Origin: a virus
DNA: 24,771 nt
IMG/VR virus record: IMGVR_UViG_3300013772_000042
Coordinates: 1-24,771 of that record
Reading direction: 5' to 3' (one strand)
Positions 1,145 through 10,244 of the stretch are shown here, piece by piece. Both the position numbers and the translations under genes were made by a program. The first letter of the stretch is position 1; each line of letters starts with the position of its first letter. Below the pieces are notes generated by a model. The model worked only from the letters and a program-made list of their open reading frames with translations, searched no databases and was not told the origin of the DNA.

Positions 1145-1882
1145 ATGACCAAGCTTAACCAGATCATTGCAGTTGAAAAGGGCGTAAAGTCCAAGGCAAA
1201 CCGCGAATTCACCACACTCCACCGAGAAGTAACCAAAGCCGCACTTCTTCAGGGCCTCTCCCGAGTCTACTACCCGAAGGATGAGGAAAACGGCGACAAG
1301 CTCCCGTCTGAGTCCACTCTCGTGCAGGTCAAGGCCGAGAACGTCATCTCCCGCGTCTCCGAGACCCTGACCAACCTCTTCGATGTCACCCTGACCAAGG
1401 AGAAGGCCAACGGCGCTGCTACGGCGGATGTCAAGGTTGACAGCAAGACCATCCTCTCCAGCGTCCCGGTCACCTACCTCCTCTTCCTTGAGAAGCAGCT
1501 TGTGGAAATCCACGACTTCGTATCCAAGCTCCCGACTCTTGATCCCTCTCAGGAGTGGACCTTTGACGCTGCACAGGGCCAGTACACTACCGGCGTAACC
1601 GAAACCGTGCGGTCCAAGAAGGTCCCCAAGACCTTTGTCAAGTACGAGGCCACCAAGGAACACCCGGCTCAGGTTGAGATCTTCCACGAAGATATCATCG
1701 TGGGTACGTGGTCCAAGCGAGAATTCTCCGGTGCGCTTCCCGCCACCCGAGTCAACGACCTCATTACCCGAGTTGAAGCCCTCCAGACCGCTGTGAAGTT
1801 TGCACGCGAAGAGGCCAACAACACCGAGATCACGGATGCCAAAGCTGGCAAGGCCGTATTCGACTACCTGTTCGCAGCGTAG
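1145..1882 (+). CDS. Conserved phage protein of unknown function (245 aa)
   Basis: The 245-aa soluble protein has no signal peptide or membrane segment. It starts MTKLNQIIAVEKGVKSKANR and is rich in charged helices, with a Val/Thr-rich middle (about residues 60-130). It resembles a family annotated only as a DUF (possibly DUF7873) in actinobacteriophages; this is from memory and untested. No catalytic motif is visible. The ATG is preceded by AAAAGGA, and a consensus-like promoter lies about 55 nt upstream, so it is probably a well-expressed single gene placed between tRNA clusters. It ends in TAG and is followed by two hairpins. Confidence 0.9.
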   Translation: MTKLNQIIAVEKGVKSKANREFTTLHREVTKAALLQGLSRVYYPKDEENGDKLPSESTLVQVKAENVISRVSETLTNLFDVTLTKEKANGAATADVKVDSKTILSSVPVTYLLFLEKQLVEIHDFVSKLPTLDPSQEWTFDAAQGQYTTGVTETVRSKKVPKTFVKYEATKEHPAQVEIFHEDIIVGTWSKREFSGALPATRVNDLITRVEALQTAVKFAREEANNTEITDAKAGKAVFDYLFAA

Positions 1883-1893
1883 TCCCCTAGATT

Positions 1894-1926
1894 CCCTGTT
1901 TGAGCACAGGGTAGCGCATGATGCGC
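1894..1926 (+). other. Two adjacent hairpins after the 1145 gene
   Basis: CCCTGT/ACAGGG (1894-1899 with 1906-1911) is followed by GCGCAT/ATGCGC (1914-1919 with 1921-1926). No T run follows. They separate the upstream mRNA from the leader of the first permuted tRNA and may block exonucleases or act as a weak terminator. Confidence 0.4.
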
Positions 1927-1958
1927 ATAGACTGAAGTTGAAACTCAGACTAAATTAA

Positions 1959-2037
1959 CTAAATCTTTCCAGTGGTGGTTCGAATCCATCTCCCGCGACT
2001 CCGACGCGGGATAGCCCAAATGGTAGAGGCAGAGGCT
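1959..2037 (+). tRNA. Circularly permuted tRNA gene 1 (3' half before 5' half; anticodon possibly CTA)
   Basis: The 3' half comes first: anticodon-stem strand TCTTT (1964-1968), variable CCAGT, T arm GGTGG-TTCGAAT-CCATC (1974-1990), acceptor strand TCCCGCG (1991-1997), A73 at 1998. After only CTCCGA comes the 5' half: acceptor strand CGCGGGA (2005-2011), TA, D arm GCC...GGC with TGGTAGA (2014-2030), anticodon-stem strand AGAGG (2031-2035), then C32 T33. Acceptor strands pair 7/7 and the anticodon stem 5/5 with G-U. Joining T33 to CTAAA (1959-1963) would give loop CTCTAAA, anticodon CTA (amber); other junctions give other anticodons, so identity is open. Sequences outside both halves (1944-1961 and 2037-2054) are complementary. 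No copy in normal order was found. Confidence 0.72.
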
Positions 2038-2113
2038 AGTGAACTTAGACTCAGATTATTGCTCCAGACTAAGCAAAATCACCGCACACAGCTAATCAAC
2101 CGTTCGAGAACTT

Positions 2114-2210
2114 AATTACGAGGCAGGGGTTCGAATCCCCTTCCGGCCTCTGTGTCTAAGACACTTGCAATAATCAAGGCCGGGTAGCTTAGTGGTAGAG
2201 CGCATAATCT
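2114..2210 (+). tRNA. Circularly permuted tRNA gene 2 (3' half before 5' half; anticodon unresolved)
   Basis: 3' half: ATTAC (2115-2119), variable GAGGC, T arm AGGGG-TTCGAAT-CCCCT (2125-2141), acceptor TCCGGCC (2142-2148), N73 T2149. A 28-nt spacer holds hairpin GTGTC-TAA-GACAC (2152-2164). 5' half: acceptor GGCCGGG (2178-2184), TA, D arm GCTT-AGTGGTA-GAGC (2187-2201), anticodon-stem strand ATAAT (2204-2208), then C32 T33. Acceptor strands pair 7/7 (one G-U) and the anticodon stem 4/5. Depending on the junction the anticodon could be CAT, CAA, CCT or ACT. Leader (2102-2110) and trailer (2219-2227) pair over 9 nt, and CACAGCTA pairs with TAGCTGTG farther out. Confidence 0.7.
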
Positions 2211-2269
2211 CAAACTGATTTTCGAACTTTAAACGTGTAGCTGTGGTAAACAATGTGGACATAAACTAA

Positions 2270-2302
2270 GAGGGCCGGTCGTCGGATATGCGACCGGCTC
2301 TC
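2270..2302 (+). other. Strong hairpin after permuted tRNA 2
   Basis: GAGGGCCGGTCG (2270-2281) pairs with CGACCGGCTCTC (2291-2302), 12 bp including one G-U, with a 9-nt loop. No T run follows, so it may be a 3' boundary for tRNA processing or a terminator of unusual form. Confidence 0.5.
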
Positions 2303-2513: not shown

Positions 2514-2518
2514 CAAAT

Positions 2519-2589
2519 CGGGAGTTAGTCTAATGGTTTGGCGGCGTAAAGACGTTTCGTTATCGGTGGTTCGATTCCACCACTCCCGA
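2519..2589 (+). tRNA. Atypical tRNA-like gene (anticodon not assignable; GAC by position)
   Basis: The acceptor CGGGAGT/ACTCCCG (perfect), D arm GTC-TAATGGTTT-GGC, T arm GGTGG-TTCGATT-CCACC and A73 (2589) are canonical and in normal order. The anticodon arm is not. The best fit is GCGTA/TTCGT with a T-T mismatch around loop AAGACGT, which lacks the near-universal T33 and has a 4-nt variable loop. A GGCGT-AAAG-ACGTT hairpin with a 4-nt loop is an alternative. It may be a decayed tRNA or one with an unusual anticodon arm. Confidence 0.6.
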
Positions 2590-6528: not shown

Positions 6529-7110
6529 ATGACAAACCCTGATTACACCGCACTACTTTTCATTATCGACCGTTCCGGCTCCATGACTATGATTAAAACT
6601 GACATGGAAGGCGGAATCAACGGTGTCCTCGAAGAGCAGAAGAAGCTTCCCGGAGAGGTAACCGTGGATGTCGCGTACTTCGACTCCCAGCTTATCTACG
6701 AAGAGCACTTCCTGTCCCTCGAATCCGCGTCCATCGAAATCAAGCCTCGCGGTATGACGGCTCTCCATGACGCCATCGTGATTAGCACCAAGAAGTTCGG
6801 TGAGTCATTGGCCCAGCTTCCGGAAGAAGACCGTCCGGGAACCGTCCTGACCATCATCGTAACAGACGGTGACGAGAACTCGTCAAACCACCACACCCTC
6901 TCCGATGTCAAGGAACTGATCACCCAGCAGCAGGATATTTACGGCTGGGAATTCCTCTTCCTCGGTGCCAATCAGGATGCAATCGCAACCGGAGATGCCT
7001 TCGGACTCCGTAAAGGTGCGTCGATGACCTACACCGCGAACTCTGCTGGAACTAGGGACGCGTCATTTGCCATGGCCAGCACCATCACGTCTGCCCGTAC
7101 CCGCGTTTAA
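6529..7110 (+). CDS. von Willebrand factor A domain protein
   Basis: The 193-aa protein is essentially one VWA domain. The MIDAS metal site is complete: D14-S16-S18 in IIDRSGSM, T77 in KPRGMTAL and D113 in IIVTDGDENSS. Such domains bind partner proteins through Mg2+; cytoplasmic phage versions are common but their partner is unknown. No signal peptide or membrane segment is present. GAAAGA within a CAAACGACGAAAG leader is the ribosome site. Its TAA overlaps the ATG of the exonuclease gene by one base, implying translational coupling. Confidence 0.92.
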   Translation: MTNPDYTALLFIIDRSGSMTMIKTDMEGGINGVLEEQKKLPGEVTVDVAYFDSQLIYEEHFLSLESASIEIKPRGMTALHDAIVISTKKFGESLAQLPEEDRPGTVLTIIVTDGDENSSNHHTLSDVKELITQQQDIYGWEFLFLGANQDAIATGDAFGLRKGASMTYTANSAGTRDASFAMASTITSARTRV

Positions 7111-8667: not shown

Positions 8668-8992
8668 GGGGATGACCGGTTTCGATTGGCATCTTTGAAG
8701 TAAGAAACGCAACCGGAAACCGGGCTACATTCCTTAAAGTGGCTCAAACGAATATCTGCAAACGATTTCGCACTAGCTGCATAGCTGCCCTGTACTTCGG
8801 CTGTTCCGAGTAGTACGACGGGTTCATAGGAACTGAGGCACCACCGAGTAGGTCAGAACTACGTGGATGCTGAAATTTATCTGACAAACCTCTGAGGTCG
8901 CTAGCAGGCCGAAAGTTGTATCTCGCTAGCAATGGTTGTATAACGTCCTTACGGATCATGACAAGACGAGGGTTCGATTCCCTCCATCTCCA
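8668..8992 (+). ncRNA. ssrA: tmRNA (ssrA), tag peptide ANDFALAA
   Basis: The 5' end GGGGATGACCGG-TTTCGATTGGC and the 3' end GAGGG-TTCGATT-CCCTC-CATCTCC-A form the alanine-tRNA-like domain (acceptor GGGGATG/CATCTCC with one G-U). The reading frame GCA AAC GAT TTC GCA CTA GCT GCA TAG (8758-8784) gives tag ANDFALAA, shorter than the 10-codon tag of E. coli but keeping the LAA C-terminus recognised by proteases. tmRNA rescues stalled ribosomes by trans-translation; phage-borne copies are known. The gene has its own promoter, and two hairpins follow. Confidence 0.93.
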
Positions 8993-9002
8993 CCCTGAGC
9001 GG

Positions 9003-9144: not shown

Positions 9145-9230
9145 GTTGTATGAGGCAGATACGTTTTGCTGCGCCTGACTGTGAATCAGGTTCCCGAAAG
9201 GGAGTGCGGGTTAGAATCCCGTCATACACC
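9145..9230 (+). tRNA. tRNA-His (anticodon GTG) with long variable arm
   Basis: The anticodon stem CCTGA/TCAGG closes loop CTGTGAA (GTG). G9145 can serve as G-1 paired with C73 (9230), the histidine identity pair. The D stem is GCAG/CTGC. The variable region is long and forms TCCC-GAAA-GGGA, typical of Tyr/Ser/Leu rather than His. The T loop is TTAGAAT, and position 1-72 is a T-C mismatch. The anticodon arm differs from the phage tRNA-Tyr only at the third anticodon base, suggesting a Tyr-to-His switch. Confidence 0.82.
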
Positions 9231-9275: not shown

Positions 9276-10244
9276 TTGCGTCAGCTAGTCACGCTCGAAA
9301 CCATTTCCGAAATCAACCCCATTCCAGATGCCGATGCAATTGAAGTATGCAAAATTAAGGGATGGAATGTCGTTACCAAGAAAGGTGAGTTCAAAGTAAA
9401 TGAAGAAATTCTCTACTTTGAGGTTGACAGTTTCCTCGCTATCTCAGATCCTCGATTCGCTTTCCTTGAACCGCGTGGAGTCCGCGTGCAGGACGGGATT
9501 ACAGGACATGTCCTCCGAACTATACGCCTCCGTGGTCAGTACTCGCAAGGGCTTATTAAGCCAGTCAGCGAGTTCCCTGAGGGAATCCCTGATGTTGTCA
9601 AGTTCGATCCGCCTCTACCGGCTGGGCTGGAAGGATCGGTTGAGGGACAGTTTCTCTACCAGTTCGCACCGAAAACGGATGCAGAGAGAATTCAGAACCT
9701 CGGAAGAGTTCTCCCGGAGATTCTTGAGAACGAGTGGATCGCAACCGAGAAGATCGACGGCACGTCAACTACAATCGTAAATGACGCCGGAACTATCCGC
9801 ATCTGCTCCCGCAACTGGGAGATCAGCCGACCCAGCGCTCGCTTTGATCTGGCCGACAAGCTGAATCTGGCAGAGATCCTGCCGGTTGATCATACACTAC
9901 AGGGCGAGTACTTTGGTGAAAACATTCAGGGAAACCCTCTGGGCATCAAGGGAACCGACTTCAAGGCCTTCAATCTGTACAAAAAGACCGAAAACGGCCC
10001 TGTAGCGATTCCGTTCAACGAGTGGCCCGACGCACTTGCCTCTCTACAGGTCCCAGTGCTGCCTCTAAGCCTCCCGCAGACCATCGATGACATCGTGGAG
10101 CAGGCTGACGGCTTGAAGTCTCAGATCAGCCCACAGCGCCTCTCAGAGGGTATTGTGTGGCAGGGCACCAAGGGCTTCCAGTTCCTCGGTAACCGTCCGG
10201 GGTTCAAGGCCATCTCCAACAAGTACCTCACCAAACAAAAGTGA
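9276..10244 (+). CDS. ATP-dependent RNA ligase (Rnl5/DraRnl-like)
   Basis: The 322-aa protein has covalent nucleotidyltransferase motifs: motif I EKIDGTS with catalytic K159, motif III-like DFKAFNLY (about 228-235), motif IV SEGIVW and motif V GFKAISNKYL near the C-terminus. The N-terminal ~120 residues look like the OB-fold found before the ligase domain in Deinococcus-type RNA ligases. The family joins 3'-OH and 5'-phosphate RNA ends after self-adenylation, typically repairing cut tRNA. Start: TTG at 9276 with AAAGG six bases upstream; the nearby ATG is out of frame. Lying after the second tRNA cluster, it could repair tRNAs cut by host defences or join the permuted tRNA ends. Confidence 0.9.
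   Translation: MRQLVTLETISEINPIPDADAIEVCKIKGWNVVTKKGEFKVNEEILYFEVDSFLAISDPRFAFLEPRGVRVQDGITGHVLRTIRLRGQYSQGLIKPVSEFPEGIPDVVKFDPPLPAGLEGSVEGQFLYQFAPKTDAERIQNLGRVLPEILENEWIATEKIDGTSTTIVNDAGTIRICSRNWEISRPSARFDLADKLNLAEILPVDHTLQGEYFGENIQGNPLGIKGTDFKAFNLYKKTENGPVAIPFNEWPDALASLQVPVLPLSLPQTIDDIVEQADGLKSQISPQRLSEGIVWQGTKGFQFLGNRPGFKAISNKYLTKQK

What the first reader, a model, noticed from the sequence alone, without database searches (positions are those of the whole stretch)
1944..2054. Circularly permuted tRNA gene in a phage (copy 1)
A canonical T arm and 3' acceptor strand (1974-1997) are followed after 6 nt by the matching 5' acceptor strand and D arm (2005-2030). The acceptor strands pair 7/7, and the anticodon-stem strands (AGAGG and TCTTT), at opposite outer ends, pair 5/5 with G-U. 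The flanks 1944-1961 and 2037-2054 are complementary at 14 of 18 positions, extending the anticodon stem and bringing the ends together with a 4-bp helix (TAGT/ACTA) next to the predicted joint. Permuted tRNA genes are known from some algae and archaea, where the splicing machinery makes a circular intermediate. I know of no characterised bacterial or phage example with a dedicated maturation route.
Basis: partly seen in the sequence, partly recalled or inferred. Interest (0 to 1): 0.93.

Follow-up and report, generated by a model that had tools for sequence, protein, structure and literature searches.

The report
Twin tRNA-mimic RNA beside DUF7873
The scrambled 'tRNA gene' is one half of a widespread, structurally conserved non-coding RNA that carries two tRNA look-alike heads, has no anticodon, and almost always sits right behind one uncharacterised protein gene (DUF7873) in large phages and in actinobacteria; that makes it a tRNA mimic rather than a tRNA.

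Summary
In detail: T arm, 3' acceptor strand, 7-nt loop, 5' acceptor strand, D arm. A second such module lies 151 nt downstream. The permuted-tRNA-gene reading is not supported. Both modules keep the tRNA core (T, D and acceptor pairing, the 8-14 and 15-48 contacts), with strong covariation across relatives. The would-be anticodon loop is unconserved: U33 in 13/63 and 23/63 sequences, against 13/13 real tRNAs in the window. Where an anticodon arm should be, each module has its own long helix. This is the architecture of bacterial YrlA-type Y RNAs (tRNA mimics).

The protein directly upstream (1145-1882) is Pfam DUF7873. A covariance model of module 2 hits 146 of 150 DUF7873 loci. In 61 Streptomyces genomes all 32 with DUF7873 have the RNA beside it; none of the other 29 has a comparable match. 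The element is independent of Ro/TROVE: absent from three phage genomes searched whole and from 10 of the 32 Streptomyces genomes. It lacks the stem motifs of Ro-linked Y RNAs and scores 17-33 bits against Rfam YrlA (cut-off 69).

Best reading: a Y-RNA-like twin tRNA-mimic RNA whose likely protein partner is DUF7873. Anatomy and linkage are shown; binding and function are inferred.

The parts
1145..1882 (+). DUF7873 protein (245 aa, PF25283), gene directly upstream of the RNA
   Evidence: Pfam E 2.6e-101; conserved in all relatives
1894..1926 (+). two small hairpins at the likely 5' end of the RNA (CCCTGT...ACAGGG and GCGC...GCGC); equivalents seen in relatives
   Evidence: read from sequence; covariation not tested
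1929..1969 (+). module 1, 5' strand of the long stem that replaces the anticodon arm
   Evidence: own-end pairing -23.4 vs -17.9 kcal/mol for mismatched loci, p 2e-7 over 63 loci
1974..1990 (+). module 1 T arm
1991..2011 (+). module 1 acceptor hairpin: 3' strand 1991-1997, loop ACTCCGA 1998-2004, 5' strand 2005-2011
   Evidence: 7/7 bp; all 7 pairs show changes on both sides among relatives
2014..2030 (+). module 1 D arm
2031..2073 (+). module 1, 3' strand of the long stem
1963..2049 (+). module 1 core as found by the module 2 covariance model
   Evidence: 42.6 bits, E 8.9e-9
2079..2248 (+). module 2 (copy 2): long stem H1-H2-H3 plus tRNA-like head; T arm 2125-2141, acceptor 2142-2148 with 2178-2184, loop 2149-2177, D arm 2187-2201
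   Evidence: 95.2 bits, E 3.6e-21; 36 pairs, 34 with changes on both sides
2270..2302 (+). terminal hairpin GAGGGCCGGTCGT-CGGATAT-GCGACCGGCTCTC with a recurring loop, roughly nGGnYAy
   Evidence: a hairpin found in 54 of 63 relatives, loop motif in most

Best explanation
The feature is module 1 of a roughly 400-nt structured non-coding RNA (about 1894-2302) downstream of, and probably co-transcribed with, the DUF7873 gene. Each of its two modules is a tRNA mimic: T arm, D arm and a hairpin-closed acceptor stem folded into a tRNA elbow with 8-14 and 15-48 contacts. Each is carried on a long helix that takes the place of the anticodon arm, which forces the circularly permuted order. It is built like a YrlA-type Y RNA but doubled, with different stem motifs, and tied to DUF7873 instead of Ro. 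Most likely mechanism: DUF7873 binds the stems or the internal loops to form an RNP, and the two tRNA-like heads engage, tether or titrate proteins that recognise the tRNA elbow and acceptor (processing or modifying enzymes, or tRNA-attacking nucleases). Shown: fold, covariation, linkage, independence from Ro. Inferred: the RNP, co-transcription, and what the heads bind.
For: DUF7873 next to the element in phage and bacterial loci. Strict modules within 700 nt downstream in 73/75 bacterial and 62/69 viral loci, against 0/75 and 2/69 in an upstream control stretch and none on the reverse strand. Module 2 covariance model hits 78/80 bacterial and 68/70 viral DUF7873 loci (two viral misses are truncated contigs). 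Module 2: 91.2% of cells paired, covariation 0.698 vs 0.227 shuffled, 0/500; the flanking helices H1-H3, which were not used to choose sequences, are 80-93% paired with changes on both sides in every pair. Module 1: 0.445 vs 0.140. The 15-48 pair is A-T or G-C in 58/63 and 60/63, with both types common in module 2. Each module pairs with its own ends, not with the other's. Streptomyces: 32/32 DUF7873 genomes have the RNA beside the gene (31 at 110 bits or more, one at 60), 0/29 others exceed 57 bits. Still one module in Rhizobium and Vibrio phages at 28-30% protein identity. Ro-linked Y RNAs of Streptomyces carry the same head directly upstream of a TROVE gene.
Against: No expression or binding data. 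The DUF7873 model (pLDDT 91, pTM 0.67) has no convincing match to a known RNA-binding fold. Copy 1 alone does not fold better than shuffled sequence. Many relatives have NCCA right after the acceptor strand, as a real tRNA end would (26/63 in module 1, 22/63 in module 2), so acceptor processing is not excluded. The loci were partly chosen by T, acceptor and D pairing, so only the flanking helices and the 15-48 pair are free of that bias.
Confidence: 0.72

Rival explanations
1. An ordinary Ro-dependent YrlA Y RNA: the phage RNA is bound by the host's or the phage's Ro (TROVE) protein, and DUF7873 is an accessory or unrelated.
For: Same permuted tRNA-like head as Ro-linked Y RNAs; Rfam YrlA is the best Rfam family, at 17-33 bits; TROVE occurs in 22 of the 32 DUF7873 Streptomyces genomes and weakly in one phage.
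Against: No TROVE in the three phage records searched whole (Racecar, NiceHouse and the 122,563-base record behind L108) nor in 10 of 32 DUF7873 Streptomyces genomes; TROVE is about as common without DUF7873 (17/29). The stem motif next to Ro genes (3' GATCTCNGG, 5/6) is in 0/63 modules of either kind, and the DUF7873 loop TTAAAYG (48/63 in module 2) is in 0/6 Ro Y RNAs.
Confidence: 0.12
2. Antitoxin-like or cis-acting RNA: DUF7873 is a toxin, nuclease or regulated product, and the RNA downstream neutralises or regulates it, as in type III toxin-antitoxin or defence modules.
For: A free-standing two-part unit with no conserved neighbour in bacteria, patchy among Streptomyces (32/61) and carried by phages.
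Against: No match of DUF7873 to any PADLOC or NCBIfam model or known toxin fold. Two complete tRNA mimics are more than simple regulation needs, and type III antitoxins are short tandem repeats upstream of the toxin gene (own knowledge).
Confidence: 0.1
3. Decoy for tRNA-cleaving or tRNA-sensing host defences, carried by tRNA-rich phages.
For: The window and its relatives are dense in tRNA genes and the window encodes an RNA ligase. PMC7790460 proposes a competitive-inhibitor role for the tRNA-like part of YrlA.
Against: The same unit is at least as common on bacterial chromosomes; no anticodon loop is present for anticodon nucleases to recognise.
Confidence: 0.2
4. A genuine circularly permuted tRNA gene with a dedicated maturation route.
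For: Complete tRNA core with tertiary contacts; NCCA after the acceptor strand in over a third of relatives; an RNA ligase is encoded in the same phage.
Against: No conserved anticodon, U33 not kept; the helix continues where the anticodon loop should open, with conserved internal loops of another kind; acceptor loops of only 4-10 nt in many relatives; two modules always beside one protein gene in bacteria.
Confidence: 0.03

Closest known systems
YrlA-type bacterial Y RNAs (Rfam RF02553), partners of Ro60/Rsr
   Same: T arm, acceptor hairpin and D arm in permuted order, on a long stem in the anticodon position; tRNA mimicry; genes beside an RNA-binding protein gene
   Different: Scores 17-33 bits against a cut-off of 69; usually two heads; a different stem and internal-loop sequence; linked to DUF7873 and independent of TROVE
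Circularly permuted tRNA genes of red and green algae and archaea
   Same: 3' half before 5' half, acceptor strands closed by a short spacer
   Different: No conserved anticodon or U33, long covarying outer helix, no sign of bulge-helix-bulge processing
Permuted two-piece tmRNA (Rfam RF04321)
   Same: T arm and 3' acceptor strand precede the 5' acceptor strand; processing inside the acceptor loop is possible
   Different: No tag reading frame or tmRNA pseudoknots found; a full D stem is present; an ordinary tmRNA lies elsewhere in the window at 8668-8994
Pfam DUF7873 (PF25283)
   Same: The upstream protein is a clear member
   Different: Family of unknown function; no paper in the held library mentions it

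Membership tests
Circularly permuted tRNA gene | 3' half precedes 5' half with full acceptor, T and D pairing | tested here: met
Circularly permuted tRNA gene | An anticodon loop with U33 and a kept anticodon forms when the ends are joined | tested here: not met
   U33 in 13/63 and 23/63; positions 32-37 near-random, against 13/13 U33 in real tRNAs of the window
Circularly permuted tRNA gene | Joined, circular or charged RNA exists | not testable with these tools
   needs RNA from infected cells
YrlA-type Y RNA (RF02553) | tRNA-like head of T arm, acceptor hairpin and D arm on a long stem | tested here: met
YrlA-type Y RNA (RF02553) | Reaches the Rfam gathering score | tested here: not met
   17.1 and 30.2 bits in the window, up to 33.1 in relatives, cut-off 69. 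Caveat: Streptomyces Y RNAs directly beside TROVE genes also fail this cut-off, so it is a weak test of exclusion
YrlA-type Y RNA (RF02553) | Linked to a Ro/TROVE gene | tested here: not met
   no TROVE in the 24.8-kb window (a fragment), in the three phage records searched whole, or in 10/32 DUF7873 Streptomyces genomes
YrlA-type Y RNA (RF02553) | Stem motif shared by actinobacterial Ro-linked Y RNAs | tested here: not met
   0/63 against 5/6 for the 3' motif
YrlA-type Y RNA (RF02553) | Binds Ro protein | not testable with these tools
   biochemistry needed
DUF7873 (PF25283) | Profile match over the curated cut-off | tested here: met
   338.9 bits, cut-off 27
Ro60/Rsr | DUF7873 is a Ro homologue by profile or fold | tested here: inconclusive
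   hhalign probability 1.2% against an actinobacterial Ro; no fold match to Ro listed, but no PDB match is convincing

The most novel reading that the evidence does not exclude
A class of ribonucleoprotein distinct from Ro: DUF7873 bound to an RNA with two tRNA-mimicking heads and a conserved terminal hairpin, spread across actinobacterial chromosomes and the phages of actinobacteria, cyanobacteria and proteobacteria, acting on tRNA metabolism, RNA quality control or tRNA-directed defence.
Probability: 0.55. Interest if true: 0.88.

Novelty: new variant of a known kind. Interest (0 to 1): 0.76.

Why it matters
It turns an apparent oddity in one phage into a widespread RNA family with a tightly linked protein of unknown function, so both can be tested together. 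It would extend bacterial Y-RNA-like tRNA mimicry beyond Ro, to a protein family with at least 439 loci in the genome collection. It also gives a practical warning: permuted tRNA order can signal a tRNA mimic, or simply two neighbouring ordinary tRNA genes, rather than a permuted tRNA gene.

Tried and rejected
Normal-order tRNA made of the module 1 D arm and the module 2 T arm: Rfam 19.2 bits with broken acceptor pairs, rejected. Cross-pairing of flanks between modules: not above the mismatched-locus control (p 0.51 and 0.19). Weak module-model hits all over Streptomyces genomes: those covering model positions 28-127, 40-116 and 24-131 that were opened are tandem ordinary tRNA-Asn genes, where the T arm of one meets the D arm of the next; those covering 48-104 that were opened lie upstream of TROVE genes. 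Conserved gene neighbourhood in bacteria other than DUF7873 and the RNA: none found. DUF7873 fold search: best Z 8.2 but rmsd 9.3 to an uncharacterised Corynebacterium protein (3kdq), not trusted; sequence search of solved structures gave nothing. A hand-made pairing scheme for the stem of module 1 aligned badly, so only its outer helix and core were scored. Literature: no paper on DUF7873, none combining Y RNA, tRNA-like and Streptomyces; the key paper on bacterial Y RNAs (Chen 2014, PMC4201824) and a review (PMC10870794) are not held.

Full report
What is there. The described element is in the sequence. Window 1974-2030 reads T arm, 3' acceptor strand, a 7-nt loop, 5' acceptor strand, U8-A9, D arm; the flanks 1944-1961 and 2037-2054 pair at 14 of 18 positions (counted by hand). 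A second module of the same order lies at 2125-2201. Strict modules are expected 0.003 times per simulated window and two are found. Neither ARAGORN nor Rfam calls a tRNA at either place. Rfam's best family is YrlA, a bacterial Y RNA with a tRNA-like part: 30.2 bits over its full length for module 2 and 17.1 bits for module 1, both under the cut-off of 69.

What it belongs to. The gene immediately upstream (1145-1882) is Pfam DUF7873, E 2.6e-101. Relatives were fetched by that protein, not by the RNA: 10 and 78 viral loci, 80 bacterial loci kept of 439, and named phages of Arthrobacter, Rhodococcus, Gordonia, Pseudanabaena, Microcoleus, Rhizobium and Vibrio. A permutation-aware scan finds a strict module within 700 nt downstream in 73 of 75 bacterial and 62 of 69 viral loci, usually two about 150 nt apart. 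In an equal stretch upstream it finds 0 and 2; on the reverse strand, none. A covariance model of module 2 finds 78 of 80 bacterial and 68 of 70 viral loci; the two viral misses are contigs that end within 200 nt of the DUF7873 stop. Even Rhizobium and Vibrio phages, at 28-30% protein identity, keep one module. The model built on module 2 also recognises module 1 of the window at 42.6 bits, E 8.9e-9, so the two are probably related.

Structure. In module 2, 36 pairs in six helices were counted on a plain MAFFT alignment of 38 sequences: 91.2% of cells paired, 34 pairs with changes on both sides, covariation 0.698 against 0.227 in shuffles (0 of 500) and at most 0.17 when slid. The three helices of the long stem, which played no part in choosing the sequences, are 80-93% paired and covary at every pair. 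Module 1 gives 94.9% and 0.445 against 0.140. The base pair 15-48, a tertiary contact of real tRNAs, is A-T or G-C in 58/63 and 60/63, and in module 2 it switches between the two (39 and 21). U8 and A14, the GG of the D loop and the TTC of the T loop are kept. Each module's outer strands pair with each other far better than with those of other loci (p 2e-7 and 1.6e-18) and not across modules. A further hairpin with a recurring loop, roughly nGGnYAy, follows module 2 at 2270-2302.

Why it is not a tRNA gene. If the ends were joined, positions 32-37 would form the anticodon loop. In 63 divergent relatives these positions are close to random, and U33, present in 13 of 13 real tRNAs of the window, is present in 13/63 and 23/63. 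The stem continues with its own conserved internal loops (ATCGA and TTAAAYG in module 2). The permuted order needs no special maturation: it is what results when a tRNA-like head is mounted on a stem in the place of the anticodon arm, as in YrlA RNA (own knowledge of Chen 2014 and the later crystal structure; PMC7790460 describes a tRNA-like domain in YrlA).

Why it is not simply a Ro Y RNA. Streptomyces and Actinomadura loci with a TROVE gene carry the same kind of head directly upstream of it, so the head is shared. The stems differ: the 3' motif of the Ro-linked RNAs is in 5 of 6 of them and in 0 of 63 DUF7873 modules, while TTAAAYG is in 48 of 63 module 2 stems and in none of the six. TROVE is missing from the three phage records searched whole. 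Among 61 Streptomyces genomes it is in 22 of 32 with DUF7873 and 17 of 29 without. All 32 DUF7873 genomes have the RNA beside the gene, 31 at 110 bits or more and one at 60, while no genome without DUF7873 has a match above 57 bits. The weaker matches that were opened are tandem ordinary tRNA genes or Ro-linked Y RNAs, which also shows how a permuted signal can arise trivially.

How it probably works. Strict linkage, conserved anatomy and autonomy suggest an RNP of DUF7873 and this RNA, with the two heads facing proteins that read the tRNA elbow and acceptor stem. The linkage and anatomy are shown; binding, co-transcription and targets are inferred. AlphaFold gives a confident monomer (pLDDT 91, pTM 0.67) with no trustworthy structural neighbour, no similarity to Ro by profile, and no match in PADLOC or NCBIfam. 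NCCA after the acceptor strand in about a third or more of the modules leaves open that some acceptor ends are cut free; the window copies have ACTC and TCTG.

Novelty and limits. Rfam 15 has no family that reaches its cut-off here, Pfam lists DUF7873 as unknown, and no held paper mentions it. A 2025 paper (PMC12282133) suggests Y RNAs and an Rsr in a Listeria phage and cites Chen 2014 for Y RNAs in mycobacteriophages. That paper could not be read here, so some of these loci may already have been listed there as YrlA-like. I therefore rate it a new variant of a known kind. The window is a 24.8-kb fragment of a viral record, so the phage's full gene set is unknown.

Noticed in passing
window 2518-2589: Divergent tRNA-like sequence not called by ARAGORN; Rfam tRNA-Sec at 26.6 bits, below the cut-off.
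   Followed up: no
window 9146-9230: Rfam tRNA match at 36 bits (over the cut-off) directly after tRNA-Asp that ARAGORN does not list.
   Followed up: no
window 6529-7110: 193-aa protein (phrog_7371) beginning TNPDYTALLFIIDRSGSM, which looks like a von Willebrand A metal-site motif; a similar small vWA-like gene follows the RNA in L157. Ro proteins also have a vWA part, but only a handful of cases were seen.
   Followed up: partly
window 9276-10244: RNA ligase of the DRB0094 type (TIGR02306 at 132 bits, just below its cut-off) next to the tRNA and tmRNA cluster.
   Followed up: partly
window 8668-8994: Phage-encoded tmRNA with tag ANDFALAA.
   Followed up: no
L189, L191, L192: Tandem tRNA-Asn genes in Streptomyces give false permuted-tRNA matches, because the T arm of one pairs with the D-side acceptor strand of the next.
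   Followed up: yes
L190 and L193, minus strand: Two permuted tRNA-like modules about 240 nt apart directly upstream of a TROVE gene in Streptomyces; these likely Ro Y RNAs also fail the Rfam YrlA cut-off.
   Followed up: partly
L002 1453-1483 and L004 453-483: Rfam abiF RNA at 33 bits (cut-off 37) among the tRNA genes of Arthrobacter phages Mimi and Talia1610.
   Followed up: no
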